Below, one piece after another: positions 1 to 20,325 of a DNA stretch of 64,000 nucleotides. The notes below the pieces were generated by a model. It had not been told where the DNA came from, made no database searches, and worked only from the letters and a program-made list of their open reading frames with translations. Position numbers and translations under genes: made by a program. Origin of the DNA: Beijerinckiaceae bacterium (GTDB taxonomy: Bacteria; Pseudomonadota; Alphaproteobacteria; Rhizobiales; Beijerinckiaceae); NCBI GenBank assembly GCA_027531565.1, contig JAPZSB010000008.1:212350-276349 (forward strand), given 5' to 3'. Numbering within the stretch: position 1 is the first letter of the stretch; each line of letters begins with the position of its first letter.

Positions 1-1
1 G

Positions 2-1098: not shown

Positions 1099-1536
1099 AT
1101 GGCACGCGTCTACGCTTCCAGCGTGATCAATGCTCCGGCGGCCCGGGTCTGGGCCCGGGTGAGGGATTTCAATGGCTTGCCGAACTGGCATCCGGCCATT
1201 GCCGAGAGCCGGATCGAGAATGGCGAGCCGGCCGACAAGGTCGGCTGCATCCGGGCCTTCTCGCTCCGGAACGGTGATCGCCTCCGCGAGCAGCTGCTCG
1301 GCCTGTCGGATTACGACATGTTCTGCACCTACTCGATCCTCGACTCGCCCATGCCGCTGACCAATTACGTCGCGACCCTGCGGCTGACGCCAATCACCGA
1401 CCAGGACCGGACCTTCATCGAATGGTCGGCCGAGTTCGATTGCGCACCCGACAAGGAGGCCGATCTGGTCAACGGCATTGGCGGCAATGTCTTCCAGGGC
1501 GGGTTCGATGCGCTGAAGCGGGCTTTCGGAGGCTGA
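1099..1536 (+). CDS. SRPBCC-family (START-like) protein, copy 1
   Basis: 145 residues of the polyketide-cyclase/SRPBCC fold: N-terminal beta strand (VYASSVINAPAARVW), then RDFNGLPNWHPAI and the DKVGCIRAFSLRNGD hairpin. Such proteins have a deep hydrophobic pocket; CoxG-like relatives accompany molybdenum hydroxylases. It is a tandem paralogue of the next gene: both keep RDFN, HP, DKVGC, LREQLL and NYVA at matching positions. It is the first gene of the molybdenum hydroxylase cluster. A direct catalytic or ligand-binding role is inferred from context only. Confidence 0.8.
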   Translation: MARVYASSVINAPAARVWARVRDFNGLPNWHPAIAESRIENGEPADKVGCIRAFSLRNGDRLREQLLGLSDYDMFCTYSILDSPMPLTNYVATLRLTPITDQDRTFIEWSAEFDCAPDKEADLVNGIGGNVFQGGFDALKRAFGG

Positions 1537-1537
1537 C

Positions 1538-1990
1538 ATGCCGAAAGTGGTCCGCAGCACGATCATCGATGTCCCGGTGGACCGGCTCTGGTCGATCGTG
1601 CGCGATTTCAACGCCCATGACCAGTATCACCCGATCGTGGCGACCAGCCAGATCGAGCGGGGTCATCCGGTGGACAAGGTCGGCTGCGTGCGGCGCTTCA
1701 CCCTGCGCGACGGCAGCGAATTGCGCGAGCAGCTGCTCAGCCTCTCCGATCTCGAGATGAGCTACTCCTATTGCCTGCTCGATACGCCGATCCCGCTCTT
1801 CAACTATGTCGCGCATATCCGGCTGCTGCCGGTGACCGATGGCAACCGCAGCTTCTGGCACTGGGAGAGCCGCTTCACCACGCCTGCCGGCCGCGAGGAC
1901 GAATTCGCCCGGATCGTCGGCGAGGATGTCTATGTCGCGGGCATGGAAGCCGTCCGCCAGTTGCCCCAACTCCTCGAGACGGGAGCCTGA
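1538..1990 (+). CDS. SRPBCC-family (START-like) protein, copy 2
   Basis: 150 residues, same fold and length as the preceding gene, starting one base after its stop. It shares the pattern VRDFN...YHPI...DKVGC.R.F.LR.G..LREQLL.LSD, so the pair arose by duplication and then diverged. It ends one base before the FAD-subunit gene, which puts both copies firmly in the molybdenum hydroxylase operon. It may bind a substrate or a maturation intermediate, or help assembly at the membrane as proposed for CoxG. Sequence alone does not decide. Confidence 0.8.
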   Translation: MPKVVRSTIIDVPVDRLWSIVRDFNAHDQYHPIVATSQIERGHPVDKVGCVRRFTLRDGSELREQLLSLSDLEMSYSYCLLDTPIPLFNYVAHIRLLPVTDGNRSFWHWESRFTTPAGREDEFARIVGEDVYVAGMEAVRQLPQLLETGA

Positions 1991-1991
1991 C

Positions 1992-2813
1992 ATGCCCCTT
2001 GCGCTGCGCGTGGCCCAGAGCCTCTCCGAAGCCGCCGGCATCCTCGCCGCGGATTCCCGCACCACCCTTCTCTCGGGCGGAACGCTCGTCATGCGGGATG
2101 TCAACGAAGGCCGCCTGATCGAGGGCACGCTCCTGCGCGTCACCGACCCGGCCTGGCGGCAGATCCAGGTCTCCGGCACGCGTATCGAGCTCGGTGCCGG
2201 CGCGACCATGGCCGCCATCCTCGCCCATCGCGAACTCGCCTTCCTCCATCCGGCGGCCCGCGCGGTGGGCGGACCGGCCATCCGCAACATGGCAACGATC
2301 GGTGGCAATCTCTTCGCCGAAACGCCCTATGGCGATTTCGCCGTGGCGCTGCTGGCGCTCGATGCGCAGGTGATGGTGCTCGCCGGCTATGGCAGCCCGC
2401 GTGCGGTTCCGATCGAGGAATTCCTCGCCGGCCGGGCGCGCGGGGAAGCGCGCCTCGTCGCGTCGGTCCAGTTCAACCGCCCGGTTGCGCCGGGGGATTT
2501 CCGGTTCCTCAAGGTCAGCCGCGTCAAGCCGAAGGGCCTGTCGGTCCTGACAATCGCCACGCATCTGCCGGGCAGCACCAGTCGGATCGGCCAGGCACGC
2601 GTGGCCTATGGCGCGATGGCGCCGCTCCCGGTCCGGGCGCGCGGGGTCGAGCGCGCGCTCGAAGGCAAGGCGCTGGATGCAGGTGGCATCGCCGCCGCCC
2701 GCGCTGCTGCGCTCGAGGGGACGCAGCCCGCCACCGATGCCATCGCCAGCGACTGGTATCGCCGCGAGGTCCTGCCGGTCCATCTCGGCCGGTTGCTGGC
2801 CGGCCAGAGCTGA
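1992..2813 (+). CDS. Xanthine dehydrogenase-family FAD-binding subunit (CoxM-like)
   Basis: 273 residues. The FAD-binding motifs of the family are clear: LLSGGTLVM near residue 28 and the second flavin loop VGGPAIRNMATIGGN near residues 93-107, followed by the CO dehydrogenase flavoprotein C-terminal domain. The start at 1992 sits one base after the upstream stop; longer in-frame starts would overlap the SRPBCC gene. It passes electrons from the 2Fe-2S subunit to an acceptor in a three-component molybdenum hydroxylase. The N terminus is slightly shorter than usual. The 2Fe-2S subunit gene follows 10 bases later. Confidence 0.9.
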   Translation: MPLALRVAQSLSEAAGILAADSRTTLLSGGTLVMRDVNEGRLIEGTLLRVTDPAWRQIQVSGTRIELGAGATMAAILAHRELAFLHPAARAVGGPAIRNMATIGGNLFAETPYGDFAVALLALDAQVMVLAGYGSPRAVPIEEFLAGRARGEARLVASVQFNRPVAPGDFRFLKVSRVKPKGLSVLTIATHLPGSTSRIGQARVAYGAMAPLPVRARGVERALEGKALDAGGIAAARAAALEGTQPATDAIASDWYRREVLPVHLGRLLAGQS

Positions 2814-2823
2814 AGGAGAGGTC

Positions 2824-3309
2824 ATGGCCAAGGTTCCCGTCCAGTTCCGTCTCAACGGCTCCGACCGCGCCGCCTTTGCCGATCCGGCGGACAATCTCCT
2901 CACCGTGCTCCGGCGGGGCCTCAATGATTTCGGCCCGAAATATGGCTGCGGACAGGGCACCTGCGGCACCTGTTCCGTGCTGGTCGACGGCGAGCTTCGC
3001 CTTGCCTGCCTGACGCTCGCCGCCTCCTGCGAGGGCGCCAGCATCGAGACGGTGTCCGGCATGGCCGACGGGCCGAACCTGCACCCGCTGCAGCAGGCCT
3101 TCATGGAGCATTTCGCCGCGCAATGCGGCTTCTGCACCCCCGGCATGCTGACGGCGGCGAAGGCGCTTCTGGCCCGCAACCCCAATCCGAGCCGGGACGA
3201 GATCATCGACGGCATTGCCGGGAATATCTGCCGGTGCACCGGCTACGAGCCGATCATCGCGGCCATCGAATCCGTGGCGCGCGGCGCGGCGGCCGGGCAG
3301 CGGCGCTGA
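2824..3309 (+). CDS. Molybdenum hydroxylase 2Fe-2S subunit (CoxS-like)
   Basis: 161 residues with two [2Fe-2S] sites. The N-terminal ferredoxin-type site is YGCGQGTCGTC plus a later Cys in RLACLTLA. The C-terminal four-helix site is AQCGFCTPGM and NICRCTGYEP, the family hallmark. A ribosome site (aaggagagg, 2812-2820) precedes the ATG at 2824. The subunit carries electrons from the molybdenum centre to the FAD subunit. All eight expected cysteines are present, so it should be functional. Confidence 0.93.
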   Translation: MAKVPVQFRLNGSDRAAFADPADNLLTVLRRGLNDFGPKYGCGQGTCGTCSVLVDGELRLACLTLAASCEGASIETVSGMADGPNLHPLQQAFMEHFAAQCGFCTPGMLTAAKALLARNPNPSRDEIIDGIAGNICRCTGYEPIIAAIESVARGAAAGQRR

Positions 3310-3323
3310 GGGGAGGCGAGGGG

Positions 3324-5060
<1,737 letters not shown>

Positions 5061-5061
5061 A

Positions 5062-6096
5062 ATGGCCCGGTTCAGGGGACGCGGCATGGCGTCCGTCAAT
5101 TACCCGATCGGCATGAATCTCGGCGGTGATCCCAGCCAGGCGCTGATCCATTCCAACCCGGACGGGAAATTCACCGTCGCGCTCTCGGCGATCGATCTCG
5201 GCCAGGGCATGAAGCAGGTGACGCGGCAGGTCGCGGCGGAAACGCTCGGTGTGCCGATCGAGGATGTCTATGTCGACACCGCCGACAGCGATACCGGCCC
5301 GCATGACATGGGCTCCTTCGCCTCCCGCGGCACCCATCGCATGGGCAATGCCGTGATCGCCGCCGCGCGCGAGGCGAGGGGCGTGCTGCTCGAGGCGGCG
5401 GCGGAGGAACTCGAGGTCAATGCGGCCGATCTCGTCACCGACGGCAAGGGCAACATCCATGTGAAGGGCGCACCCTCGCGCTCCATCACCGTCCGCGCCA
5501 CCGCGCAGGCCGCGCAGTTCAAGCAGGGCAAGACGATTGCCGGCCGCGGCATTTTCCTCATCCCGCTCTCCTCGGTGGATCCCGAGACCGGCGAGATGAA
5601 CCCCAACACGGCCTTTGCCCATGCCTGCCTCGTGGCGGATGTCGAGGTGGATGACGAGACCGGCGAGGTCACGGTCCTCGGCATGAATTCGGCCTATGAG
5701 CTCGGCCGGGTCATCAACCCGAAAATGGTGGAGCAGCAACTCGTCGGCGGGGCCTGGATGGGCATCAGCCATGCGCTGTATGAAACGCCGGAACCCTATT
5801 ACCCCAATCCGGATCATGGCCCGCGCGATTTCAACGAATACCTGATGCCCGGCCCGGGCGACATCGCGCCCTACAGCATCGCCATCCTCGAACGGCCGGC
5901 GCCGGACGGGCCCTTCGGCGGGAAGGGCCCCGGCGAGATGTGCGCCAACCCGGTCCTGCCGGCCATCGCCAACGCGGTCTACAACGCCGTCGGCGTCCGG
6001 GTGAACGACCTGCCGATCACCCCGGAGAAGATCCTGCGCGGCATCCGGGCGAATGGTGGTGCGAAGCCGCAGGCGCGGCGCGGCGGAGCGCTCTGA
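5062..6096 (+). CDS. Molybdopterin-binding subunit, C-terminal half (split large subunit)
   Basis: 344 residues corresponding to the second molybdopterin-binding domain of xanthine dehydrogenase-family large subunits. Visible motifs are the cofactor-binding IDLGQGMKQV, the SFASRGTHRMGN loop, and GKGPGEMCANPVLPAIANAV, with the expected catalytic glutamate at residue 292. The ATG at 5062 is one base after the stop of the first half and in a different frame, so this is a gene boundary and not a single nonsense mutation. Both halves keep their active-site motifs, so a functional two-chain large subunit is likely. The MoxR gene follows 3 bases later. Confidence 0.87.
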   Translation: MARFRGRGMASVNYPIGMNLGGDPSQALIHSNPDGKFTVALSAIDLGQGMKQVTRQVAAETLGVPIEDVYVDTADSDTGPHDMGSFASRGTHRMGNAVIAAAREARGVLLEAAAEELEVNAADLVTDGKGNIHVKGAPSRSITVRATAQAAQFKQGKTIAGRGIFLIPLSSVDPETGEMNPNTAFAHACLVADVEVDDETGEVTVLGMNSAYELGRVINPKMVEQQLVGGAWMGISHALYETPEPYYPNPDHGPRDFNEYLMPGPGDIAPYSIAILERPAPDGPFGGKGPGEMCANPVLPAIANAVYNAVGVRVNDLPITPEKILRGIRANGGAKPQARRGGAL

Positions 6097-6099
6097 GCC

Positions 6100-6984
6100 A
6101 TGACGATCCGCGCGCTGCCCAACGGTCTGTCCAGCCCCGAGGCCCTGTCGGAGGCCCTGCGTGCGGCCTATTACCTCGCCGATGACGGCATCGCCACGGC
6201 GGCCTTCCTCTCGCTCGCGCTGGGCAAGCCCCTGCTGCTGGAAGGTGCGCCGGGCGTCGGCAAGACCGAGGCGGCGAAGGCGCTGGCCGGCATTCTCGGC
6301 CGGCAGCTGATCCGTCTGCAGTGTTTCGAGGGCATCGATGCGAGCGCGGCCCTCTACGAATGGAACTATCCGCGCCAGATGCTTGCCATTCGGCAGGCGC
6401 GGGAGGGCGAGAGTGCCGATCTCTACCGCGACGATTTCCTGATCGAGCGGCCGATGCTCTCGGCCCTCAGGCGGCCCGAATCCACGGTGCTTCTGATCGA
6501 CGAAATCGATCGGTCGGACCATGAATTCGAGGCGTTCCTGCTCGAATTCCTGTCCGATTTCTCGATCTCCATCCCCGAGCGCGGCACCTTGCGCGCGGCG
6601 GAGCGGCCGGTGGTGATCCTCACCTCGAACCGCACGCGGGACCTGCACGAGGCGCTCCGCCGACGCTGCATCTACCACTACATTGCGTATCCCGATCCGG
6701 CGCGCGAGGCGGCGATCATCATGCTGCGTTCCTCGGCGGTGGCCGAGCAGACCGCCCGTGCGGTGGTGCAGGCCGTTGGCCTGCTGCGGCAGGAACCGCT
6801 GACCAAACCACCGGGCGTGGCCGAGGCGGTCGATTGGGCCGAGGCTGCAACCGCCCTCGCACGGACCGGGGCGCCCTGGCCGGACGCGTTCCGCCGCTCG
6901 ATCGGCGCGGCGCTGAAGGACGAGGAGGACCTGGCCTTCCTGCGCCCGCGGCTCGATTCCCTGATCGCGGCGGTGGCGGCATGA
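6100..6984 (+). CDS. MoxR-family AAA+ ATPase (CoxD-like maturation factor)
   Basis: 294 residues. Walker A is GAPGVGKT (49-56), Walker B is LLIDEIDR, with sensor-type ILTSNRTRDLHEAL. The early CFEGIDASAALYEWNYPRQML segment is typical of the CoxD branch of MoxR ATPases, which work with a VWA partner to insert or sulfurate the metal centre of molybdenum hydroxylases. The next gene is that VWA partner and overlaps by four bases (ATGA). Function as an assembly chaperone is from family knowledge and context. Confidence 0.9.
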   Translation: MTIRALPNGLSSPEALSEALRAAYYLADDGIATAAFLSLALGKPLLLEGAPGVGKTEAAKALAGILGRQLIRLQCFEGIDASAALYEWNYPRQMLAIRQAREGESADLYRDDFLIERPMLSALRRPESTVLLIDEIDRSDHEFEAFLLEFLSDFSISIPERGTLRAAERPVVILTSNRTRDLHEALRRRCIYHYIAYPDPAREAAIIMLRSSAVAEQTARAVVQAVGLLRQEPLTKPPGVAEAVDWAEAATALARTGAPWPDAFRRSIGAALKDEEDLAFLRPRLDSLIAAVAA

Positions 6985-8123
6985 TTGACCCGCATCGCAA
7001 CCCGCTGCCGGCCGCGAGCCGCCCCTTCGTCGCCTTCCCGGCCTTGCTGCGCGAGCATGGCTTTGCTGTGGCACCGGACCAGACCCTGACCTTCCTCGAG
7101 GCGATCACCGTGCTGGGGCCGCGCTCGCTCGAGCAGGTCCGGCAGGCGGCATGGGCCACGCTGGCGCCGCAGCCGCACCAGCGCGAAACCTTCGACGCCC
7201 TGTTCGATTTCCATTTCCTCGGCGGCATGGCCGAACCGGGCGAGGCGGAGGACTGGCAGCCTGACGAGGAACTCAAGCTCCAGGAGGATGTGGGCAGCCG
7301 CGAGATCCTGATCGGCGAGAGCGTCAACGAAACCGGTCAGCAGGCGATCGAGGCCGAGGCGCTGGCCATCCGCGCCCTGCGCCCACCGGATGCCGCCGGC
7401 ACGCTGGCGCGTTTCGCCCGCGACCTGCCGGCCGCCCTGCCGCGCCGGCGCGGCTACCGTTACCGCCGGGCCCGTCGCGGCGCGTCGATCGATCTCGCCC
7501 GCAGCCTGCGCGCCGCGATCCGCACCGATGGCGACGTGGTCACGCTTGGCCGTCGCCGCCGGGCCACCCGGCCCCGGCCGATCCTGCTGATGATCGACGT
7601 GTCCGGCTCGATGAAGCAGCGCAGCGACGCCAATCTCGCACTGGCGCATGTGATCGTGCAGAGCGCACCCCGCGTCGAGGTGTTCACCTTCGGCACGCGG
7701 CTCACCCGCGTCACCCGCGCGCTGAAGCTGAAAAACCGCGAGCAGGCCCTCGCCACCGCTTCCGGCCTTGTGGCGGATTGGGATGGCGGCACCCGGATCG
7801 GCGATGCGCTGGCGGCCTTCCTCGCCGTGCCGCGCTTTGCGGGCTATGCCCGCGGCGCCGTGGTGGCCATCCTCTCGGACGGGCTCGAACGCGGCGATCC
7901 CGCCGCCATGATCGGCGCCGTCCGGCGCATGGCAGCCCGCGCCTTCCGCATCGACTGGTTCTCGCCGCTGGCAGCCGACCCTGATTACCGGCCGCAGACG
8001 GAAGCCCTGGCCGCGATCCGGCCGATGCTGGCCAGCCTCGCCAATGGCCACTCGACCGCGGCGATCTGCCGGCATCTGCTGGCCCTGGGGCAGGGTCCGG
8101 CCCGGCCGGGGAGGGCGGCATGA
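6981..8123 (+). CDS. VWA-domain protein (CoxE-like), MoxR partner
   Basis: 380 residues. A C-terminal von Willebrand A domain carries an intact MIDAS DVSGSMK starting at residue 206, with downstream FTFGTRLTRVT and ILSDGLERGD. The N-terminal half is an Arg-rich segment preceded by helices. The ATG at 6981 overlaps the MoxR stop; longer in-frame starts would run deep into that gene. MoxR/VWA pairs act together as metal-cofactor assembly machines, here for the adjacent molybdenum hydroxylase. It overlaps the next gene by four bases. Confidence 0.88.
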   Translation: MIDPHRNPLPAASRPFVAFPALLREHGFAVAPDQTLTFLEAITVLGPRSLEQVRQAAWATLAPQPHQRETFDALFDFHFLGGMAEPGEAEDWQPDEELKLQEDVGSREILIGESVNETGQQAIEAEALAIRALRPPDAAGTLARFARDLPAALPRRRGYRYRRARRGASIDLARSLRAAIRTDGDVVTLGRRRRATRPRPILLMIDVSGSMKQRSDANLALAHVIVQSAPRVEVFTFGTRLTRVTRALKLKNREQALATASGLVADWDGGTRIGDALAAFLAVPRFAGYARGAVVAILSDGLERGDPAAMIGAVRRMAARAFRIDWFSPLAADPDYRPQTEALAAIRPMLASLANGHSTAAICRHLLALGQGPARPGRAA

Positions 8124-8998: not shown

Positions 8999-9013
8999 CG
9001 AGGAGGAACCCCC

Positions 9014-11564: not shown

Positions 11565-11915
11565 ATGGGCAAGGCAGGCGGCATTTCCATCCACGCGGTC
11601 GATGTCTCGACCGGAAAGGTCGCGGCGGGTCTGGCGGTGGAACTGCACCGGCTGGAACCGGCGCCGGCCCTCGTCGCAACCGGGACGATCGGCCCGAACG
11701 GCCTGCTCGACCATCCTTCTGCCGCGGGCGAGGGCATCACGGCAGGGCTCTACGAGGTCCGGTTCGATCTCGGTGGCTTCTTCGCGGCTTCAGGCCGGGA
11801 GGCGCCCTTCCTCGATCAGGTCCCGTTCCGCTTCCATGTCCGGCAGGTCGCCGAACACTATCACCTGCCGTTCAAGTTCACGCCCTTCGGGTTCTCGCTG
11901 TTCCGGGGGGCCTGA
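11565..11915 (+). CDS. Divergent transthyretin-like / 5-hydroxyisourate hydrolase-family protein
   Basis: 116 residues. The transthyretin-like fold of HIU hydrolase is recognisable: SIHAVDVSTGKVAAGL at the start (His10), RFHVRQVAEHYHLPF, and a C-terminal PFGFSLFRGA matching the family's YRGS tail. Two usual active-site features differ: the Arg of the TNxDGR loop is replaced (GPNGLL, 43-48) and the terminal Ser is Ala. It may act on a modified HIU-like substrate or have lost activity. It converges with the amidohydrolase gene, whose stop abuts its own. Confidence 0.78.
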   Translation: MGKAGGISIHAVDVSTGKVAAGLAVELHRLEPAPALVATGTIGPNGLLDHPSAAGEGITAGLYEVRFDLGGFFAASGREAPFLDQVPFRFHVRQVAEHYHLPFKFTPFGFSLFRGA

Positions 11916-13457
11916 TCAGCGCGCATTGTAATGCGTGTGCGGCGGGAGCGGTTCCTCCGGCAGCCAGCGATCATAGAACGCCTTCACATGCGGGAAGACC
12001 GCCTCGGCCAGCTGCTGCCGCGCGATCTCGCCGGGCGTGAGCGGCGCGGCGAGGCTCTCGCGGATCGCCTCGTGGATGGCGATGCGGTCGATCCGCAGGA
12101 ACCGGCCTTCGGCATAGATGACCTCGCCGCCGACCATGACCGACTCGACCGCTTCCGGTTTCGCGCGATGGACCAGCACATCGACGAGCGGGGTTCCGGC
12201 ATGCTGGTAGGGGCGGGTGATGCGCGCATGGTCCAGCACCACGAGATCAGCCTCCGATCCCGGTCGCAGCGAGCCGATCGCCGTGCCGAACGGCGTCGTC
12301 GCGGCGCCATGCTCGGTGGCCATCCGGAACACATCCGCTGCGGAAGGATGCGGCGCGTCGATGCCCGGCTCGCGATGGGCGCGCAGCACAAGCCGCATTT
12401 CCTGAAGCATGTCGCGGTCATCGTTGAGGCCGGCTTCGTCGATGCCAAGGCAGACCGGGATGCCCTTCGCAAGGAAGCGATTGACCGGCGCGATGCCGCT
12501 TTTGAGCCGGAAATTCGACGAGCAGTTATGGCAGATCCGCACGCCATGCGCCGCGCAGAGATCGATCTCGGCCTCGCTCATCCAGACGCCATGCCCGAGC
12601 GTCAGCCGGTCATGCACCAGCCCGAACCGCGCCAGATGCGCCAGCGCGGATCCGCCTGTCCGCCGCCGGGCATATTCCCGCTGATAGGGCGTCTCGAGCA
12701 GATGCATATGCATCGGCAGGCCATGGCGCGCGGAGAGTTCCGCCGCGAGCCCGAGCGCCGCGTCCGACAGCCAGTGAAGGTTCGCCGGAGCGATCTGCAG
12801 GCGGATGCGGCTCTCGCCGGCCAGCTCCGCGTGCAGGGCATCGAACACGGCGACCTGCTGATCCAGCGGCAGCGTGAAACGCTCGAAATAGGCGCGCAAG
12901 GCCGGGCGCAGCGCTTCCGGCACGCTCTCGGTGAAGAGCCGGTCATCGGCATAGACCAGCCGGTTCTGGTCGCGCAGGGCCATGGAATAGGAAGCCCGCA
13001 TCCCGATCTCGCGATAGGCGCCGATCACCTTCCGCGCCGCGCCGAGGACGGCCTGCGCCTCGCCCGGTGCGCGGGAATGCAGGTGCTGCACGGTGGTGAT
13101 CCCGCTGGCGATCATCTCGAAAGCGGAGAACAGCGTGTCGAGCCGGAGATCGACGTCGCGCAACGCGAGGCGGGAGGCGAACCACAATTCCAGCGGATGG
13201 TCGGGCGAGCCGAGCTGGAACGGCGTCAGCCCGACATGGTGATGCGCATTGATCAGCCCCGGCATGATGACCTTGCCGCTTCCGCCGATCTCCCGCGCGC
13301 CGGGATGTCGGGTCCGCATCACCGCCGCAGGTCCTATCGCCGCCACACGCCCGCTTTCGATGGCGATGGCGGCCTCTTCATGGATCTGCAGCGTGCCGTC
13401 CGGCGTGAAGCCCTCGATGATCCGGTCACCGATCGCGAGAATGGTTTCGGGCTTCAT
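11916..13457 (-). CDS. ATZ/TRZ-type amidohydrolase (guanine/oxoguanine deaminase-like)
   Basis: 513 residues from the ATG at 13457; an in-frame ATG at 13490 would overlap the upstream deacetylase gene. Metal ligands of subtype III amidohydrolases are visible: INAHHHVGLT, MHMHLLET, TLGHGVWMSE, and GIDEAGLNDDRDML, with the composite domain closing in LRPGSEADLVVLDH. Relatives deaminate or dechlorinate purines, triazines and similar N-heterocycles. It lies 20 bases after the deacetylase gene on the same strand, forming a two-gene unit divergent from the transporter operon. Confidence 0.88.
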   Translation of the reverse strand: MKPETILAIGDRIIEGFTPDGTLQIHEEAAIAIESGRVAAIGPAAVMRTRHPGAREIGGSGKVIMPGLINAHHHVGLTPFQLGSPDHPLELWFASRLALRDVDLRLDTLFSAFEMIASGITTVQHLHSRAPGEAQAVLGAARKVIGAYREIGMRASYSMALRDQNRLVYADDRLFTESVPEALRPALRAYFERFTLPLDQQVAVFDALHAELAGESRIRLQIAPANLHWLSDAALGLAAELSARHGLPMHMHLLETPYQREYARRRTGGSALAHLARFGLVHDRLTLGHGVWMSEAEIDLCAAHGVRICHNCSSNFRLKSGIAPVNRFLAKGIPVCLGIDEAGLNDDRDMLQEMRLVLRAHREPGIDAPHPSAADVFRMATEHGAATTPFGTAIGSLRPGSEADLVVLDHARITRPYQHAGTPLVDVLVHRAKPEAVESVMVGGEVIYAEGRFLRIDRIAIHEAIRESLAAPLTPGEIARQQLAEAVFPHVKAFYDRWLPEEPLPPHTHYNAR

Positions 13458-13477
13458 CGGTCGATCCTCGCGGGCTG

Positions 13478-14380
13478 TCATGGCGGGCATGCCGCAGCAA
13501 AGGCCCGGGCAATGGCATCGCGCCGGGCGACATAGACCCGGTCTCCCAAAGCGGCCAGCCGGGCCAGCACCTGTTCGAAAGCCGGGAAGCGTGCCGGCCG
13601 GCCGCAGATGCGGAGATGGTAGCCGATATTGAGCAGGCGCGGCCGGCCGTGATCGGCTTCGGCCAGCAGCACGTCGAGCGCATCCGAGACATAGTCCACC
13701 ATCTCGCCGGCCCTCACGAACCCGTTGGGATGGAAGAACTTCATGTCGTTCGTGTCCAGCGCATAGGGAAGCACCAGCAGGGGCGCTTCGCCCGCGCGGT
13801 CCCAGTAGGGCAGGTCATCGTCGAACGCATTCGAGGCATAGGCAAAGCCCCGTTCGCGCAGTAGGGCGCGCGTCCAGTCGCTCTCGGCGCCCCGGCAGAA
13901 GAACCCGGCCGGGCGGGTGCCGCAGGCCGCCTCGATCACCGCGATGGAGCGGTCGAGATCACGCGCCTCCTCGGCGCTGCTGGCATAGTCGGCATGGGGC
14001 CGCCAGCGCCAGCCATGCAGGGCCGGCTCATGGCCTCGGCGCACAACCTCCGCGGCGAGAGCCGGCGACTGCTCCACCGCCCTGCCGCAGAAGAAGAAGG
14101 TGGCTGGCAGGGCGTGCCGGTCCAGCGCGTCGAGCATCCGCCAGAGACCGGCCCGCATGCCATAGGCGAAAATCTGTTCCTGCCCGCGATCCCGCCGCCC
14201 GGGCTCGACCACGCTGATCACCTCGCCCATGCGTTCGCTGGCCGGATCGCCATAACCGACCTGCATTTCCGCGCCTTCCTCGAAATTGACCACGACGGAA
14301 ACCGCAAGCCGGGCGCCATTCGGCCAGCGGAGATCCGGCCATATTCCGCCATAGCCGGTCAGGTCATTCGGCATGCGCAA
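13478..14380 (-). CDS. Polysaccharide-deacetylase-fold protein, PuuE-like (divergent copy)
   Basis: 300 residues; an ATG six bases downstream (14374) is also possible. It shares its layout with the PuuE-type gene at 18550: VVVNFEEGAEMQ, FAYGMRAGLWRMLDAL, PALHGWRWRPH, AFDDDLPYWDR and YALDTNDMKFF. The PuuE allantoinase family has an NodB-type fold but hydrolyses a cyclic amide. This copy is more diverged from the canonical sequence (FFCRGAESDWT where the other has WYCRYGPSVNT), suggesting a related but different ring-opening substrate. Confidence 0.82.
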   Translation of the reverse strand: MRMPNDLTGYGGIWPDLRWPNGARLAVSVVVNFEEGAEMQVGYGDPASERMGEVISVVEPGRRDRGQEQIFAYGMRAGLWRMLDALDRHALPATFFFCGRAVEQSPALAAEVVRRGHEPALHGWRWRPHADYASSAEEARDLDRSIAVIEAACGTRPAGFFCRGAESDWTRALLRERGFAYASNAFDDDLPYWDRAGEAPLLVLPYALDTNDMKFFHPNGFVRAGEMVDYVSDALDVLLAEADHGRPRLLNIGYHLRICGRPARFPAFEQVLARLAALGDRVYVARRDAIARAFAAACPP

Positions 14381-14680
14381 GTCTCGGAAAGGTCTCGGGC
14401 AAGGACGACGGCATTGGCAGGGGGCCTCGTTGCTGGGGCTTGTGGCGGCGAGGCGAAGGTCTCGCCGGCCAGGTGAGCCGGATCAAGCAAGGGCAGTGCC
14501 GGTGCACGATCCGGCCACCTGCACACGATTGCCCATTTTTTAGACAGCTTCGAGCATTTTGTATAAAAAATTCAACAGATCGCCCAGCGATTGGGCGCTC
14601 GCGGCTCCGGATGGCCTCCTGCAGGGTGGCACGGGCGTTGCGTGGTCGTTGGCCAACATCGTGTCGTCCGGAACAATCGT
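14381..14680. other. Divergent intergenic region between deacetylase/amidohydrolase unit and ABC transporter operon
   Basis: About 300 bases with no convincing gene. The left two thirds are GC-rich and featureless; the last third has an AT-rich patch (14534-14580) that holds a sigma70-like promoter for the transporter operon. Confidence 0.6.
14540..14567 (+). promoter_or_regulatory. Predicted sigma70-type promoter of the ABC transporter operon
   Basis: TTAGAC (14540-14545), a 16-base spacer, then TATAAA (14562-14567) in an otherwise GC-rich intergenic stretch, upstream of the transporter ATPase. TTGTATAAAA at the -10 region resembles half of the TTGTATACAA-type operators used by some GntR regulators, which could make it a controlled promoter. 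Inference from base pattern only. Confidence 0.4.
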
Positions 14681-15796
14681 GTGCCCTCGCCAGACCCTCT
14701 CGCCCCGCCGGAAATCCAGAGCCAGCCGCTGACGCTGGATGCCATCTCGCACAGCTATGGCGATGCGCTGGCCGTCAACGAGGTCACGCTGGAAGTCCGG
14801 GCCGGCGAGCTGATTGCCTTGCTGGGCCCTTCCGGTTGCGGAAAATCCACCCTCCTGCGGATCGTGGCCGGCTTCATCAACCAGACTTCGGGCCGCGTGG
14901 TCATCGCCGACCGTGTGGTGGATTCCCTGCCGCCGAACCGGCGGGAAGTGGGCATCGTCTTCCAGTCCTACGCCCTGTTCCCGCATATGACCGTGGCGGA
15001 AAACATCGCCTACGGGCTCGAAGCGCGCGGCGAGAGCAAGGCGACCTGCCGCGAGCGGGTCAGCGAGATGCTGGCCACGGTGCGGATGGAGGGTTTCGCC
15101 GACCGCAAGCCCCGGCAGCTTTCCGGCGGCCAGCAGCAGCGCGTGGCGCTGGCGCGGGCGCTCGCCGTCCGGCCGCGGATCCTGCTTCTGGACGAACCCT
15201 TCGCCGCGCTCGACAAGAACCTGCGCCTCGACATGCAGATCGAGATCAAGCGCCTGCAGCGCCAGTTCGGGCTGACGGCCATTCTCGTCACGCATGATCA
15301 GGACGAGGCGATGTCGATCGCCGACCGGATCGCCGTGATGAGCAAGGGGCGGATCGAGCAGCTCGGCTCCCCGGTCGAGATCTACGACCAGCCGGAAACC
15401 CTGTTCGTGAACGATTTCATCGGCTCCTCGAACCGCTTTGCCGGCGTGATCGAAAGCGCGGGCGAGGGCGCCTATGGTGTTCGCCTTGCCAGCGGCGCGC
15501 TCTGGAATGTGGCCAGCCGCAAGGCCTTTGCCCCGGGTGACCGGGTTGTCGCCACGATCCGGCCCGAACAGCTCGTCCTGACCGATCAGGCCACCGACGG
15601 GAGCATTCCCGTCACGCTCAAGCTCAGCCTGCCGATCGGCGGCGAGCTGATCCATGACGTGGAAACCCGCTCCGGCGAGGCCTTCAAGGTCGCCGCCGGC
15701 CGCCGGCCGGGCGAGCCCGTCAGCCCGATGGCCGCCACCCATTGCGCCCTGGCCCCGCATGCCAGGCCCGTCCTCTTTCCCCAACCCGCCGCATGA
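14681..15796 (+). CDS. ABC transporter ATP-binding protein (PotA-like)
   Basis: 371 residues if translation starts at the GTG at 14681; the open frame extends to 14591 but has no better start. Walker A GPSGCGKST (49-57), Q-loop VFQSYALFPHMT, signature LSGGQQQRVALARAL (from about 147), Walker B ILLLDEPF and a C-terminal TOBE domain. It energises import with the two permeases and binding protein that follow. It belongs to the spermidine/putrescine-Fe-sulfate subclass; the real ligand is probably the compound degraded by the surrounding enzymes. Confidence 0.88.
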   Translation: MPSPDPLAPPEIQSQPLTLDAISHSYGDALAVNEVTLEVRAGELIALLGPSGCGKSTLLRIVAGFINQTSGRVVIADRVVDSLPPNRREVGIVFQSYALFPHMTVAENIAYGLEARGESKATCRERVSEMLATVRMEGFADRKPRQLSGGQQQRVALARALAVRPRILLLDEPFAALDKNLRLDMQIEIKRLQRQFGLTAILVTHDQDEAMSIADRIAVMSKGRIEQLGSPVEIYDQPETLFVNDFIGSSNRFAGVIESAGEGAYGVRLASGALWNVASRKAFAPGDRVVATIRPEQLVLTDQATDGSIPVTLKLSLPIGGELIHDVETRSGEAFKVAAGRRPGEPVSPMAATHCALAPHARPVLFPQPAA

Positions 15797-15828
15797 GGCG
15801 GCGCCTGACGTCACAAGGAGAAGCCGAC

Positions 15829-16857
15829 ATGACCGATCTGACCCGCCGTTCCGCGCTCAAGGGCGTCGCCGCGCTCGGCGCCGCCGCTGCGCTGCCGCTG
15901 CCCGCCCGCGCCTCGACCTCGCTCAACGCCGCGATCTATCCCGGCACCTGGGACGAGGCCTACCGCGCGATCGTCGCGCCGCAGCTCAAGGCCAAGCACG
16001 GCATCGACGTGGCCTTCGATACGCTCTGGGCTGTCGACCAGGTGACGAAAGTGCGTGCTGCCCGAGGCGTGCCGCCCTTCGATTGCTTCGTGCTCGATCC
16101 CGGCCCCTCCGCCGCGGCCCGCCAGGCAGGCCTGTTCGACCCGATCGATGCCTCCAAGCTCACCAATGCCTCGAAGCTTCCGGCCGGCATGATCGCCCCG
16201 GACGCGGTGACGGTGAACGTGCAGGTCGTCGGCATCTGCTACAACCCGAAGAAGGTGCCGAACCCGCCCAAGACCTGGGCGCAGCTTTTCGAGTCGCCCT
16301 ATGTCGAGCGCCTCGGCCTGACTGGTTTCCAGACGACCTTCGGCACGGTCTCGCTGGTCGAGATGGCCAAGGCCTTCGGGGGCTCGGCCACGGATATCGA
16401 GCCGATCTTCAGGAAGCTGAAGGAAGTCCTGCCGAAGGTTGCCGCCGTGTCGACCCCGGCGGCGCTGCCGGGCCTGTTCCAGCAGGGCCAGATCGATATC
16501 ATGTATACCAACACCAACAATGCCGCGACGCTGAAAGCCAAGGGTGTCGACATCGCCTTCCTCGCGCCGGAGAGCGGGGCCATCACCTTCTCCACGACCC
16601 TGCATATCGTGAAGGGTTCGGAGAACCGCGAAGCCGCGCACAAGTATATCGACACGGTGATCGCGGCCGATGCGCAGTCGAAGCTGCAGCTTTCGCCCTA
16701 CAACATGATCCCGGTCAACAAGGACGTGAAGCTCTCCGACAATCTCGACGTGAAGTCGCTCGACGAGGTGGCGAAGATGGTCACGCATGACTGGAACGTC
16801 ATCAACCCGCAGCGCGCGGCCTGGATCGAGCGCTTCAACAAGGAAATCACGAAGTAA
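15829..16857 (+). CDS. ABC transporter periplasmic substrate-binding protein (PotD-like), Tat-type signal
   Basis: 342 residues. The N terminus has a twin-arginine-type signal (TRRSALKG, then a hydrophobic Ala/Leu stretch ending ARA-S), so it is exported folded to the periplasm. The body is a type 2 binding protein of the spermidine/putrescine family (AAIYPGTWDEAYR, FDCFVLDPGPSA, GQIDIMYTNTNNA). A strong ribosome site (aaggag, 15815-15820) fixes the start at 15829; the longer frame upstream overlaps the ATPase gene. It delivers the unknown ligand to the two permeases. Confidence 0.88.
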   Translation: MTDLTRRSALKGVAALGAAAALPLPARASTSLNAAIYPGTWDEAYRAIVAPQLKAKHGIDVAFDTLWAVDQVTKVRAARGVPPFDCFVLDPGPSAAARQAGLFDPIDASKLTNASKLPAGMIAPDAVTVNVQVVGICYNPKKVPNPPKTWAQLFESPYVERLGLTGFQTTFGTVSLVEMAKAFGGSATDIEPIFRKLKEVLPKVAAVSTPAALPGLFQQGQIDIMYTNTNNAATLKAKGVDIAFLAPESGAITFSTTLHIVKGSENREAAHKYIDTVIAADAQSKLQLSPYNMIPVNKDVKLSDNLDVKSLDEVAKMVTHDWNVINPQRAAWIERFNKEITK

Positions 16858-16869
16858 GGCGGCGGGAAC

Positions 16870-17724
16870 ATGAGCGGGGCGGCAACAAGCGAAACGGCAG
16901 GAGTGGAGTGGCGCCTCGCGGCGCCGCTCGGCCTGACCTATCTCGCCTTCTTCGCCGCGCCGCTCCTCATCCTGCTGGTGATGTCCTTCTCGGTCGATGA
17001 CAATCTCGGCGGGTTCTCGCTGGCCGCCTGGGCCAAGTTCTGGGGTGATCCGTTCTATCGCGGCGTCGTCTGGGACACGTTGCGCCTCGGCCTCGTGACC
17101 GTGGCCATGACCACGCTCTTCGCCTACCCGATCGCGCTGCTCTTCATCGCGAGCGGGCCCGGCCTCCAGCGGCTGCTGCTCTTCATCGTGCTGCTGCCGC
17201 TGCTGACTTCGGTCGTGATCCGCACCTTCGCCTGGATCGCCATCCTCAGCCGGGAAGGGGTGCTCAATCAGGCGCTGCTGGCGCTCGGGCTGACGACGGC
17301 ACCGCTCAACCTGCTCCAGACGGAACTCGGCCTCGTCATCGCGCTGATGCAGATCGAGATGCCGCTGATGCTCCTGCCTCTCATCACGGTGATGCAGCAG
17401 ATCGATCCCAGCCTGTCCGATGCCTCCCGCGCGCTCGGGGGCTCGAAATGGCGGACCTTCCGCAAGGTCATCCTGCCGCTTTCGCTGCCGGGCTGGATCG
17501 CCGGCGCCACGCTCGTCTTCGCTTCGGCGACGACGGCCTTCATCTCGCAGACCGTCATCGGCGGCGCGCGGCTCGTCTACCTCCCGACGCTGATCTGGCA
17601 GCAGGCCATGGTGGTCTATAACTGGCCCTTCGCCGCCGTGGCCTCGGTCACGCTGCTCGTCGCCGTTCTGGCCGGCGTCAGCCTCTTTGCCATGCTCGGT
17701 CGCTTCGCGAGGACCACCGCATGA
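16870..17724 (+). CDS. ABC transporter permease (PotB-like)
   Basis: 284 residues, about six membrane helices, with the ATPase-docking EAA-type loop SDASRALGGSKWRTFRKVILP. It starts 12 bases after the binding-protein stop and overlaps the next permease by four bases. Together with that partner it forms the inner-membrane channel of the importer. Confidence 0.9.
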   Translation: MSGAATSETAGVEWRLAAPLGLTYLAFFAAPLLILLVMSFSVDDNLGGFSLAAWAKFWGDPFYRGVVWDTLRLGLVTVAMTTLFAYPIALLFIASGPGLQRLLLFIVLLPLLTSVVIRTFAWIAILSREGVLNQALLALGLTTAPLNLLQTELGLVIALMQIEMPLMLLPLITVMQQIDPSLSDASRALGGSKWRTFRKVILPLSLPGWIAGATLVFASATTAFISQTVIGGARLVYLPTLIWQQAMVVYNWPFAAVASVTLLVAVLAGVSLFAMLGRFARTTA

Positions 17725-18545
17725 CGCGCCAGCTCAACACGCCGATGGATCGCGGCTATTCGCTCGTCATGGGGACGCTGGCGGTGATCGGCCTCGGCAT
17801 CCTGATCGTGCCGGTCATCATCGTCCTGCTCAGCTCCTTCACCTCGTCGACGGTGCTGAAATTCCCGCCGCCCGGCTTCTCGCTGCGCTGGTACGAGGCG
17901 TTGCTCGATCCCGTCCGTTCGCGCCATGTCCATGTCGCGCTGTCGAACTCCCTCTGGGTGGCCCTCAGCGCCACGGCTTTGGCCGCAATCCTCGCGACGT
18001 TGGCCGCCCTTGCGCTCAACCGGGTGAGTCGCCCCTCGGCCCGGGCACTGGAGGCCGGGTTCCTTTCGCCGCTCATCCTGCCCGGCCTCGCCTTCGGCCT
18101 CGCGACGCTGATGTATTTCTCCATCCTCGGCTTCCGGCCATCGCTCAACCTGCTGATCGCCGGGCATATCGTGGTCATCGCGCCCTTCATCTTCCGGACC
18201 ACGCTGGCGAGCCTGACCCAGCTCGATCCGGCTTTGCATGAAAGCTCCGCCAGCCTGGGCGCCGGGCGCCTCTATACCTTCCGCCGCATCACCCTGCCGA
18301 TCATCGCGCCGGGCATCGCCGCCGGGGCTTTCCTCGCCTTTGTCGCCTCGATGGACAACGTGCCGGTCTCGCTCTTCCTCTCGAATGCCCGCACCAACAT
18401 GCTGCCGATCCGGATGTGGGGCATGATGGAGACGACGCTCGATGTCCGCGTCGCCGCCATGTCCGGCGCGCTGATCGTGGTCGTGCTGGTGCTGATGATC
18501 GTGATGGACCGGCTGACCAACCTGACCCGCCGCATGAGCATGTGA
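17721..18545 (+). CDS. ABC transporter permease (PotC-like)
   Basis: 274 residues, about six membrane helices, with the coupling loop ESSASLGAGRLYTFRRITLP. The start codon overlaps the stop of the first permease, a sign of translational coupling. The gene is followed four bases later by the PuuE-like gene, tying the importer to ring-opening enzymes. Confidence 0.9.
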   Translation: MTRQLNTPMDRGYSLVMGTLAVIGLGILIVPVIIVLLSSFTSSTVLKFPPPGFSLRWYEALLDPVRSRHVHVALSNSLWVALSATALAAILATLAALALNRVSRPSARALEAGFLSPLILPGLAFGLATLMYFSILGFRPSLNLLIAGHIVVIAPFIFRTTLASLTQLDPALHESSASLGAGRLYTFRRITLPIIAPGIAAGAFLAFVASMDNVPVSLFLSNARTNMLPIRMWGMMETTLDVRVAAMSGALIVVVLVLMIVMDRLTNLTRRMSM

Positions 18546-18549
18546 GACG

Positions 18550-19458
18550 ATGATGATCGATGACCGCGACCTGATCGGCTATGGCGCCAACCCGCCCGAC
18601 CCGCGCTGGCCGGGCGGGGCCCGCATCGCCATCAATTTCGTCATGAACTACGAGGAAGGCTCCGAGCCCTCCATCCAGGATGGCGAGGACTTCACCGAAA
18701 TCGGCCTGACCGAGGCGCATGGCCTCAACCAGGGCGTGCCGGGCCGCGACCTCGCGGGGGAGGGCATGTTCGCCTATGGCAGCCGCGTCGGCTTCTGGCG
18801 CCTGATGCGCCTCTTCCAGGAGCGTGGCCTCCCGATGACGATCTTCGGCTGCGCGCTGGCCATCGAGCGCAATCCGCAGGCTGCCGCGGCCATCCGCGCC
18901 TCCGGCTTCGATTGCTGCTGCCATGGCTGGCGCTGGATCAAGCATTTCCTGCTGAGCGAGGAGGAGGAGCGCGAGCATATCCGCCTGGCGGTCGAATCCC
19001 TCCGCAAGACGCTCGGCGAACGCCCGCTCGGCTGGTATTGCCGCTACGGGCCCAGCGTGAACACGCGCCGGCTCGTGGTGGAGGAGGGCGGCTTCCTCTA
19101 TGATTCCGACGCCTATGATGACGAGCTGCCCTACTGGAAGACGGTCTCGGGCAAGCCGCACCTTGTCGTGCCCTATTCGCTCGCCAATAATGACGGCAAG
19201 TTCTGCGGGGCTTTCGCCACCTCGAACGACTATTTCGAATGGCACAAGGATGCGTTCGACATGCTCTGGCGCGAGGGGAAGACCCAGCCGAAAATGATGT
19301 CCGTCGGCCTGCATATGCGGCTGATCGGCCATCCCGCCCGCGCGGCGGGGCTGGAGCGCTTCCTCGATTACGTGCAGGGGCATGAGGGCGTCTGGATCAC
19401 CCGCCGGCTGGACATTGCCCGCCACTGGGCCGCGACCCATCCCTTTCCCGGGCCGTGA
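18550..19458 (+). CDS. puuE: PuuE-like allantoinase (polysaccharide deacetylase fold)
   Basis: 302 residues (a second ATG lies three bases in). The sequence reads like the cofactor-independent allantoinase PuuE throughout: RDLIGYGANPPDPRWPGGARIA-type opening, FVMNYEEGSE, HGWRWIKHF, RPLGWYCRYGPSVNTRRLV, SDAYDDELPYWKT and DIARHWAATHPF. PuuE opens the hydantoin ring of allantoin to allantoate. With no uricase or OHCU decarboxylase nearby, it may serve a related cyclic amide. It follows the importer genes directly and precedes the NHL gene by three bases. Confidence 0.78.
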   Translation: MMIDDRDLIGYGANPPDPRWPGGARIAINFVMNYEEGSEPSIQDGEDFTEIGLTEAHGLNQGVPGRDLAGEGMFAYGSRVGFWRLMRLFQERGLPMTIFGCALAIERNPQAAAAIRASGFDCCCHGWRWIKHFLLSEEEEREHIRLAVESLRKTLGERPLGWYCRYGPSVNTRRLVVEEGGFLYDSDAYDDELPYWKTVSGKPHLVVPYSLANNDGKFCGAFATSNDYFEWHKDAFDMLWREGKTQPKMMSVGLHMRLIGHPARAAGLERFLDYVQGHEGVWITRRLDIARHWAATHPFPGP

Positions 19459-19461
19459 ACG

Positions 19462-20325
19462 ATGACGCGCGATACGCCTCCGCTCCACACGCTGACGGTC
19501 GCGCTCGGCGAGCGCCTCTTCACGGTCACGCGGCCCTTCGGCACGTGGCCCGCGAATAGCGGCAAGGTCTCCGATGTGACGGTCGGGCCCGATGGCCGGA
19601 TCTACGTCCTGCTGCGCCACGATCCGCTGGTCGATCCGGATGATCCGCGCGTGATCATCCTCGCGCCCGACGGCGCGTTCCTCGGCGCGTTCGGCGGCAG
19701 CGAGATCGCCGACAGCCATTGCCTCACCGCCCATCCGGACGGCCGGATTTTTGTCGTGGACCGCGACATGCACGAGATCGTCATCTTCTCGGCCGAGGGT
19801 ACCCGCCTCGGCGGGATCGGCACGCGCGGCGTCCCGCATGCGCCCTTCAATCACCCCACCGATATCGCCATCGGCCCGACGGGCGATCTCTACGTGTCCG
19901 ATGGCTATGCCGGCTGGCATGTCCATCGCTTCGCGCCGGATGGCCGCCATCTCTCGACATGGGGCAGCTTCGGCACGGGGCCGGGCGAGTTCGCCGAGCC
20001 GCACGCCCTCTGGTGCCTCCCGGACGGGCGCGTCGTGGTCGTCGACCGCTGCAATCACCGGCTGCAGGTTTTCGATGCCGAGGGCCGCTATCTGATCGAG
20101 TGGGGCGGGTTCCGCCGCCCGGTTGCAATCTGGGGCGATACAGGCGGGCGGCTTTACGTAACCGACGAGACGCCCAGTCTGACCTGCCTCGGGTCGGATG
20201 GACGCCGCATCGGCCGGGCTCGGCCCATGCTCAACGGCGCGCATGGCATCTATGGCCTGCCGGATGGATCGCTCCTGCTGGCCGAAGCCAATCCCAGCCG
20301 GATCACGCGGCTCTCGCCGGTTTGA
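19462..20325 (+). CDS. NHL-repeat beta-propeller protein (peptidyl-amidating-lyase-like)
   Basis: 287 residues built of repeated strands with the NHL pattern: VSDVTVGPDGRIYVL, HCLTAHPDGRIFVVDRD, HPTDIAIGPTGDLYVSDGY, HALWCLPDGRVVVVDRCNHRLQVF and GIYGLPDGSLLLAE. No signal peptide is seen, so it is probably cytoplasmic. Relatives include peptidyl-alpha-hydroxyglycine amidating lyase and many unassigned propellers found in catabolic operons. It is the last gene of the transporter operon. Confidence 0.8.
   Translation: MTRDTPPLHTLTVALGERLFTVTRPFGTWPANSGKVSDVTVGPDGRIYVLLRHDPLVDPDDPRVIILAPDGAFLGAFGGSEIADSHCLTAHPDGRIFVVDRDMHEIVIFSAEGTRLGGIGTRGVPHAPFNHPTDIAIGPTGDLYVSDGYAGWHVHRFAPDGRHLSTWGSFGTGPGEFAEPHALWCLPDGRVVVVDRCNHRLQVFDAEGRYLIEWGGFRRPVAIWGDTGGRLYVTDETPSLTCLGSDGRRIGRARPMLNGAHGIYGLPDGSLLLAEANPSRITRLSPV

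What the first reader, a model, noticed from the sequence alone, without database searches (positions are those of the whole stretch)
1099..20325. Unassigned N-heterocycle catabolic cluster combining a molybdenum hydroxylase, HIU-hydrolase-like and PuuE-like enzymes with its own importer
Seen: a complete Mo hydroxylase with MoxR/VWA maturation genes, a deaminase-type amidohydrolase, two PuuE-like proteins, a transthyretin-like protein, an isochorismatase-like fusion, a lactonase-like protein and a PotABCD-type importer, nearly all overlapping or within a few bases. Known: such enzymes act on purines, hydantoins and other N-heterocycles. Inference: a dedicated import and degradation pathway. 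Uricase and OHCU decarboxylase are missing and the HIU-hydrolase-like active site is altered, so the substrate is probably not plain urate; methylated or otherwise modified purines or pyrimidine-like rings are candidates.
Basis: partly seen in the sequence, partly recalled or inferred. Interest (0 to 1): 0.75.

Follow-up and report, generated by a model that had tools for sequence, protein, structure and literature searches.

The report
Composite ureide and molybdenum-hydroxylase catabolic island
This bacterial genome carries, side by side, two separately conserved gene modules: one that probably imports and opens hydantoin- or allantoin-like nitrogen rings, and one built around a molybdenum hydroxylase whose substrate is unknown.

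Summary
The genes are real and tightly packed, but they look like two modules, not one pathway. M1 (1-11494) is the 3' part of a longer operon: a Liv-type importer, Fe-ADH, AraC, LivF~UPF0261 fusion, PEP_hydrolase and flotillin lie upstream. Its 11 genes from SRPBCC1 to SMP30~isochorismatase recur in order in 16 of 20 fetched loci; its Mo subunit is split, like nicotinate dehydrogenase. M2 (11565-20325) holds deaminase-like AH1, two PuuE-like proteins, PotADBC, an NHL propeller and a divergent transthyretin-like protein. AH1 relatives have PuuE-type genes nearby in 12 of 14 loci versus 4 of 31 controls, and hydantoin-racemase-type genes in 9 of 14 versus 2 of 31. The transthyretin-like protein belongs to a separate clade without the HIU-hydrolase Arg, and the genome has urate genes elsewhere, so plain urate is unlikely. 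NHL keeps residues resembling peptidyl-hydroxyglycine lyase (roles recalled), suggesting a glyoxylate-releasing step.

The parts
1..1069 (+). 3' part of a flotillin gene, member of M1; its 5' part lies upstream of the window
   Evidence: Flot domain in 167-1066, Band_7 in the upstream part, frame open across the border; flotillin C-terminus just before SRPBCC1 in 8 fetched loci and annotated so in Yoonia
1099..1536 (+). SRPBCC1 (Polyketide_cyc2)
   Evidence: Pfam; syntenic in M1 loci
1538..1990 (+). SRPBCC2 (Polyketide_cyc2)
1992..2813 (+). Mo hydroxylase FAD subunit
   Evidence: FAD_binding_5, CO_deh_flav_C
2824..3309 (+). Mo hydroxylase 2Fe-2S subunit
   Evidence: Fer2, Fer2_2
3324..5060 (+). 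MoN: first half of the split Mo-binding subunit, with a proline-rich tail
   Evidence: Ald_Xan_dh_C, MoCoBD_1; best solved relative 3hrd_A
5062..6096 (+). MoC: second half of the split Mo-binding subunit; Tyr14 and Glu292 invariant in 23 rows
   Evidence: MoCoBD_2; best solved relative 3hrd_B
6100..6984 (+). MoxR-type AAA ATPase, probable maturation factor (role inferred)
6981..8123 (+). CoxE-type VWA protein, probable maturation factor (role inferred)
   Evidence: VWA_CoxE
8120..8998 (+). AH2: amidohydrolase_2, lactonase-like
9014..9862 (+). MBL-fold lactonase-like hydrolase, HxHxDH motif invariant in 24 rows
9905..11494 (+). SMP-30 lactonase-like domain fused to an isochorismatase-like domain with TNMS in place of a Cys nucleophile
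11565..11915 (+). divergent transthyretin/HIUase-like protein lacking the DGRxD Arg, ending LFRGA instead of YRGS
11916..13457 (-). AH1: TRZ/ATZ-family amidohydrolase, probable hydrolytic deaminase (reaction inferred)
13478..14374 (-). PuuE1: PuuE-like ring hydrolase (reaction inferred)
   Evidence: TIGR03212 260.7 bits, below cut-off 424.6
14375..14677 (.). 303-bp divergent intergenic region, probable promoter region of both M2 units (inferred)
14678..15796 (+). PotA-type ATPase; start codon not fixed (the coordinate used is not a start codon call)
15829..16857 (+). PotD-type substrate-binding protein with a weak TAT-signal match
16870..17724 (+). PotB-type permease
17721..18545 (+). PotC-type permease
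18550..19458 (+). PuuE2: PuuE-like, closer to true allantoinase than PuuE1
   Evidence: TIGR03212 392.9 bits, below cut-off 424.6; 52% to the genome's C12 PuuE
19462..20325 (+). NHL propeller with invariant R52, H86, Y149, H181, H261, resembling peptidyl-hydroxyglycine lyase
   Evidence: role of the residues recalled

Best explanation
The region is a composite island. M2 (11565-20325) is a cyclic-ureide catabolic module: PotADBC imports a small hydantoin- or allantoin-like ring or its amino/imino (guanidine-derived) precursor; AH1 hydrolyses an exocyclic amino or imino group to an oxo group; PuuE1, PuuE2 and possibly the divergent TTR protein open the ring; the NHL protein acts as a PAL-type lyase that releases glyoxylate from an N-CH(OH)-COO- intermediate, in effect a ureidoglycolate-lyase analogue. 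An amidohydrolase, hydantoin-racemase-type, amidase and PuuE-type set on contig C9 may supply missing steps. M1 (flotillin to SMP30~isochorismatase) is a different, widely conserved operon that hydroxylates an unknown compound with a split, nicotinate-dehydrogenase-like Mo enzyme and processes the product with several lactonase-like hydrolases; its importer is the upstream Liv-type transporter. Shown: gene content, module boundaries, conservation, linkage, residue losses. Inferred: every reaction and substrate.
For: M1: 11 genes in the same order in 16 of 20 fetched loci; 3 are cut by a contig or fetch edge and 1 (L157) has only the last two genes, three query segments. In ten upstream regions the AraC cluster was found in 10, the flotillin/PEP_hydrolase and ABC-ATPase clusters in 9, LivK in 7 and Fe-ADH in 6 (my simple gene caller misses genes and some regions are cut, so these are lower bounds). 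M2: AH1 relatives at 55% or more have a PuuE-type gene within 6 kb in 12 of 14 loci (10 of 12 without L058 and L059) versus 4 of 31 controls, a hydantoin-racemase-type gene in 9 of 14 versus 2 of 31, and SIS/PfkB/BtpA genes in 7/6/5 of 14 versus 0 of 31 (query families confirmed by Pfam). PuuE1 and NHL co-occur in 10 genomes (14 with each, of 297; Fisher p 1.1e-11 without the own genome, not corrected for kinship). In G019, PuuE1 is divergent from PotADBC-PuuE2-NHL as here, without AH1. C9 set. 25 of 25 divergent TTR rows (23 distinct loci) lack the Arg, 14 of 14 canonical rows keep it, clade support 1.000. R52, H86, Y149, H181 and H261 are kept in 11 of 11 NHL rows (10 distinct); 3fvz (PAL) is among the solved relatives.
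Against: No tool shows a substrate. Against the hydantoin reading: the dihydropyrimidinase/hydantoinase-like query was found beside 0 of 14 close AH1 loci versus 4 of 31 controls, the amidase query 0 of 14 versus 0 of 31, and any racemase/hydantoinase/PuuE gene stood by 15 of 35 loci at 42-55% AH1 identity versus 8 of 31 controls, a small difference. Racemase, SIS, PfkB and BtpA genes are not among the window's M2 genes. NHL matches TRIM and other non-enzyme propellers with better scores than PAL. PuuE1 and PuuE2 both fall under the allantoinase cut-off. Against two modules: whole-genome co-occurrence of M1 with TTR-clade, PuuE1 and AH1 genes is above chance (p 0.0006, 0.00033 and 0.0062 without the own genome, uncorrected).
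Confidence: 0.55

Rival explanations
1. One pathway: the Mo hydroxylase oxidises an imported N-heterocycle, AH1 deaminates it, and TTR, PuuE and isochorismatase enzymes open and dismantle the ring.
For: Adjacency in the window, L058 and L059; AH1 directly convergent with M1 in G070 too; above-chance co-occurrence of M1 with PuuE1, AH1 and TTR-clade genes in 297 genomes (uncorrected for kinship); TTR follows the M1 operon by 70 bp.
Against: No AH1 in 19 of 20 M1 loci; MoC within 6 kb of AH1 in 2 of 14 close loci (L058, L059), 1 of 35 at 42-55% and 4 of 31 controls; M1 has its own importer genes; M1 of G070 and the window are so close (76-96% per protein) that the shared AH1 adjacency may be one inherited event.
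Confidence: 0.25
2. Methylxanthine or methylurate pathway like caffeine C-8 oxidation (Cdh plus TmuH-like plus trimethylallantoinase-like enzymes).
For: Same classes of enzymes as the CBB1 caffeine cluster described in PMC4408171 (passages): Mo dehydrogenase, HIUH-like, allantoinase-like; divergent TTR lies near a second OHCU decarboxylase in six of 18 genomes.
Against: No TmuM-like monooxygenase or TmuD-like decarboxylase among the 20 genes scanned; the Mo enzyme's best solved relative is nicotinate dehydrogenase.
Confidence: 0.1
3. M1 degrades a pyridine carboxylate or another aromatic or lactone-forming ring (about M1 only, so compatible with the best explanation for M2).
For: Split Mo subunits and best hits to nicotinate dehydrogenase; Liv importer and Fe-ADH; SDR and fumarylacetoacetate-hydrolase-family genes follow it in Yoonia.
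Against: No ring dioxygenase, 6-hydroxynicotinate reductase or enamidase among the M1 proteins scanned; the isochorismatase domain lacks the Cys of maleamate-type amidases (triad recalled).
Confidence: 0.3

Closest known systems
Nicotinate dehydrogenase of Eubacterium barkeri (3hrd; organism recalled)
   Same: Large Mo subunit split in two; best solved match for both MoN (211.8 bits) and MoC (165.1 bits)
   Different: MoxR/VWA, flotillin and lactonase-like genes in the operon, proline-rich MoN tail; selenium ligand and substrate not tested
Canonical urate pathway (PuuD, UraH, UraD, PuuE)
   Same: Same superfamilies TTR and PuuE
   Different: Arg lost in TTR, no urate-oxidising or UraD gene here; the genome carries those on C12 and C13
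Caffeine C-8 oxidation cluster of Pseudomonas sp. CBB1 (PMC4408171, passages)
   Same: Mo dehydrogenase, HIUH-like and allantoinase-like genes in one cluster
   Different: TmuM and TmuD equivalents missing; PotADBC, AH1, NHL and lactonase-like genes extra
Hydantoin utilisation clusters (racemase, hydantoinase, carbamoylase; recalled)
   Same: AH1 relatives sit with Asp/Glu/hydantoin-racemase-family and PuuE-type genes
   Different: Hydantoinase-like genes are not enriched beside close AH1 relatives (0 of 14); in this genome a racemase and a hydantoinase-like gene are on C9
Peptidyl-alpha-hydroxyglycine lyase (PAL domain of PAM, 3fvz)
   Same: NHL propeller; R, three H and Y kept at motifs that I recall as PAL's
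   Different: Bacterial, stand-alone, next to PuuE2; activity untested

Membership tests
5-hydroxyisourate hydrolase (UraH/PucM) | Transthyretin family match; equivalog cut-off | tested here: inconclusive
   PF00576 81.8 bits, over its cut-off; TIGR02962 74.0 bits, below its cut-off 87.45
5-hydroxyisourate hydrolase (UraH/PucM) | Catalytic Arg in DGRxD (role recalled) | tested here: not met
   NGLLD in the window; lost in 25 of 25 clade rows (23 distinct loci), kept in 14 of 14 canonical rows
5-hydroxyisourate hydrolase (UraH/PucM) | C-terminal YRGS | tested here: not met
   LFRGA in the window; Phe for Tyr in 25 of 25 rows; the last residue is visible in 9 rows and is Ala or Val, never Ser
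5-hydroxyisourate hydrolase (UraH/PucM) | Two catalytic His (role recalled) | tested here: met
   H10 and H100 kept
Allantoinase PuuE (TIGR03212) | Score over the curated cut-off 424.6 | tested here: not met
   PuuE1 260.7, PuuE2 392.9
Nicotinate dehydrogenase | Split Mo subunit with NDH as nearest solved relative | tested here: met
Nicotinate dehydrogenase | Acts on nicotinate; selenium ligand | not testable with these tools
   needs protein
Cys-dependent isochorismatase-family amidases (CSHase, RutB, maleamidase) | Asp-Lys-Cys triad (recalled) | tested here: not met
   Asp18 and Lys116 invariant, Ser in place of Cys in 25 of 25 rows
Caffeine C-8 oxidation cluster | TmuM-like monooxygenase and TmuD-like decarboxylase present | tested here: not met
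   No such family among the 20 proteins scanned
PAL-type alpha-hydroxyglycine lyase | Zn-binding His x3, catalytic Arg and Tyr (recalled) | tested here: inconclusive
   R52, H86, Y149, H181, H261 in 11 of 11 rows, 10 distinct; equivalence rests on recalled motifs, no structure compared
Named TRZ/ATZ deaminase subfamilies (for AH1) | Over a curated cut-off | tested here: not met
   best PRK09045 191.8 versus 540; below the cut-off for each of the 25 families shown of 36

The most novel reading that the evidence does not exclude
Two new enzymes of ureide breakdown lie here: an NHL propeller that works as a ureidoglycolate-lyase analogue of PAL type beside a new PuuE-type ring hydrolase, and an Arg-less transthyretin clade that hydrolyses a ring other than 5-hydroxyisourate, together degrading guanidine-derived hydantoins (for example oxidised guanine or glycated arginine products). 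M1 is a third, unassigned molybdenum-hydroxylase system shared across bacterial orders.
Probability: 0.2. Interest if true: 0.75.

Novelty: new variant of a known kind. Interest (0 to 1): 0.5.

Why it matters
Two gene sets that recur in many genomes (M1 by full-length fusion match in 38 of 297 order genomes; divergent TTR over 100 bits in 19 of 297) are known here only by superfamily, and TTR-clade members on Azospirillum and Defluviimonas plasmids are annotated as plain 'hydroxyisourate hydrolase'. If the clade has another substrate, those annotations are wrong and a class of cyclic-ureide catabolism becomes testable with a handful of purified proteins. A PAL-like NHL lyase would link an animal peptide-hormone enzyme fold to bacterial nitrogen recycling.

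Tried and rejected
Purine-specific residues in the Mo enzyme: the Glu and Arg that resemble xanthine dehydrogenase's (recalled) seem, by eye in printed alignments, to be kept also in nicotinate dehydrogenase and 4-hydroxybenzoyl-CoA reductase, so they say nothing about the substrate. Empty-site test in two same-genus genomes (G082, G287): of the two flanking genes tried, one had no match and the other only a 38% match in G287, so no insertion site was defined. Plasmid search for PuuE1 found nothing at E 1e-60. Literature: ten searches listed no paper that I could recognise, from titles and abstract starts, as describing M1, M2 or the Arg-less TTR clade; the library is open-access only. PMC4408171 and PMC5028733 were seen only as found passages; the other papers only as search listings. 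No structure was predicted: I judged it would not tell the substrate. The Fisher tests ignore kinship of genomes; the gene lists for them were typed into the script from the tables, with cut-offs chosen by eye; G246's NHL match is partial and G038's fusion is in two pieces.

Full report
Check of the observation. ORFs and Pfam matches confirm the genes named. Neighbours on one strand are -4 to 70 bp apart; TTR and AH1 are convergent with no gap, PuuE1 and PotA divergent with 303 bp between. The order from SRPBCC2 to NHL is kept at 89-90% DNA identity in Rhabdaerophilum sp. SD176 and a pond MAG, which suggests, without proof, that the window comes from that genus or near it. Two same-genus genomes (G082, G287) had no match within the limits set for the M1 fusion, AH1, PuuE1 or NHL.

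Module M1. In 20 loci fetched around relatives of the SMP30~isochorismatase fusion, 16 carry all eleven genes from SRPBCC1 to the fusion in the same order; L150, L152 and L160 are cut by an edge, and L157 has only MBL and the fusion. The fusion matches over nearly its full length at 59% or more in 38 of 297 order genomes, the own genome included, and in two pieces in G038. Upstream of the window the same contig has LivK, Fe-ADH, AraC, LivH, LivM, LivG, a LivF~UPF0261 fusion, PEP_hydrolase and a flotillin whose frame runs open into the window. In ten upstream regions of other genomes the AraC cluster was found in 10, flotillin/PEP_hydrolase and ABC-ATPase clusters in 9, LivK in 7 and Fe-ADH in 6; my gene caller misses genes and edges cut some regions, so these are lower bounds. 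Yoonia's plasmid copy is annotated with flotillin, SRPBCC, FAD, Mo subunits, MoxR, VWA, amidohydrolase, lactonase and isochorismatase in that order. More distant Mo subunits occur in Nonomuraea and the archaeon Salinigranum, 63% and 60% for MoC. The importer of M1 is therefore most simply the Liv-type one, not PotADBC (inference).

The Mo enzyme is split in two ORFs, and 3hrd_A and 3hrd_B, the two Mo subunits of nicotinate dehydrogenase, are the best solved matches of the two halves. The isochorismatase domain has TNMS(I/V)E in 25 of 25 rows, with Asp18 and Lys116 kept; from what I recall of this family, the missing Cys argues against an ordinary amidase. AH2, MBL and SMP30 domains resemble lactonases, the first two far below the curated cut-offs. 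M1 thus gives little sign of nitrogen-ring chemistry.

Module M2. AH1 scores best against TRZ/ATZ hydrolases and deaminases, below the cut-off of each of the 25 families shown of 36. One scan of genome contigs kept the best 80 of 496 confirmed relatives. Fourteen have AH1 at 55% or more; within 6 kb, 12 have a PuuE-type gene, 9 a hydantoin-racemase-type gene, 7 SIS, 6 PfkB and 5 BtpA genes, against 4, 2, 0, 0 and 0 of 31 loci with AH1-like genes under 35% (the query proteins match those Pfam families). Two of the 14 are L058 and L059 and some contigs are short. Against the hydantoin reading, the hydantoinase-like query was found by 0 of 14 close loci and 4 of 31 controls, and any racemase, hydantoinase or PuuE gene by 15 of 35 loci at 42-55% versus 8 of 31 controls. 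In those 35 the deaminase often stands beside an NMT1-type importer (permease in 23, binding protein in 20). In G019, PuuE1 is divergent from PotADBC-PuuE2-NHL without AH1, with a weak racemase match beside PuuE1. The own genome has on C9 a PotDABC set, a third PuuE-like gene, an amidase, an Asp/Glu/hydantoin-racemase-family gene and an amidohydrolase that resembles hydantoinases only by similarity to another such query. A Bosea MAG (L064) joins racemase, PuuE and Pot genes to the M2 genes.

The TTR protein. Of 297 genomes 195 have a TTR-family match; 19, the own included, have one over 100 bits to the window's, and all 19 hold at least two TTR matches, against 13 of the other 176 by my count of the table. 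Of the rows aligned, 25 of 25 clade rows (23 distinct loci) lack the Arg of DGRxD and have Phe for the Tyr of YRGS, while 14 of 14 canonical rows keep DGR and YRGS; clade support is 1.000. In six of 18 genomes searched, a second, lower-scoring OHCU decarboxylase lies within about 5 kb of the clade TTR. The window's genome has only one, on C12.

The NHL protein. R52, H86, Y149, H181 and H261 stand in 11 of 11 rows, 10 of them distinct. Their agreement with the PAL residues rests on motifs I recall; 3fvz appears among the solved relatives but below TRIM-type propellers. PAL cleaves N-CH(OH)-COO- bonds, the chemistry of ureidoglycolate lyase (recalled), and NHL follows PuuE2 by 3 bp, hence the proposal.

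Are M1 and M2 one pathway? For: adjacency here and AH1 beside M1 in G070; co-occurrence, the own genome left out, of M1 with PuuE1 (7 shared genomes, p 0.00033), the TTR clade (8, p 0.0006) and AH1 (4, p 0.0062), uncorrected for kinship. Against: no AH1 in 19 of 20 M1 loci, no MoC within 6 kb in 12 of 14 close AH1 loci, M1-NHL p 0.07, and separate importer genes. I give one pathway 0.25.

Novelty. Ten literature searches in the held open-access library listed nothing that I could recognise as either module or the TTR clade (calls in Tried and rejected). The kinds of enzyme are known; the combinations and the TTR clade look undescribed there.

Noticed in passing
G000:C4 upstream of the window (L035:8157-19501): Liv-type importer with LivF fused to UPF0261 (Tm-1-like), PEP_hydrolase and flotillin as recurring partners of a Mo hydroxylase.
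   Followed up: partly
G000:C9 (L205:5723-14000): PotDABC, a third PuuE-like gene, amidase, hydantoin-racemase-family and hydantoinase-like amidohydrolase genes in one cluster.
   Followed up: partly
L040, L046, L047, L049, L050, L053: Arg-less TTR gene near a second OHCU decarboxylase and Tct-type transporter genes.
   Followed up: partly
L036-L039, L041-L045, L048, L051: Arg-less TTR gene with another PotADBC-type importer, often with an MFS transporter and an amidase.
   Followed up: partly
L073-L105: AH1-type deaminase beside NMT1-type ABC importers in Methylobacterium, cyanobacteria, Burkholderiaceae and others.
   Followed up: no
window 20534-21889: Protoglobin-MCP fusion directly downstream of the island, a possible oxygen-sensing chemotaxis receptor.
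   Followed up: partly
L069, L208, L207: SIS, PfkB and BtpA genes next to PuuE1 and AH1, hinting at a sugar-linked substrate in those relatives.
   Followed up: no
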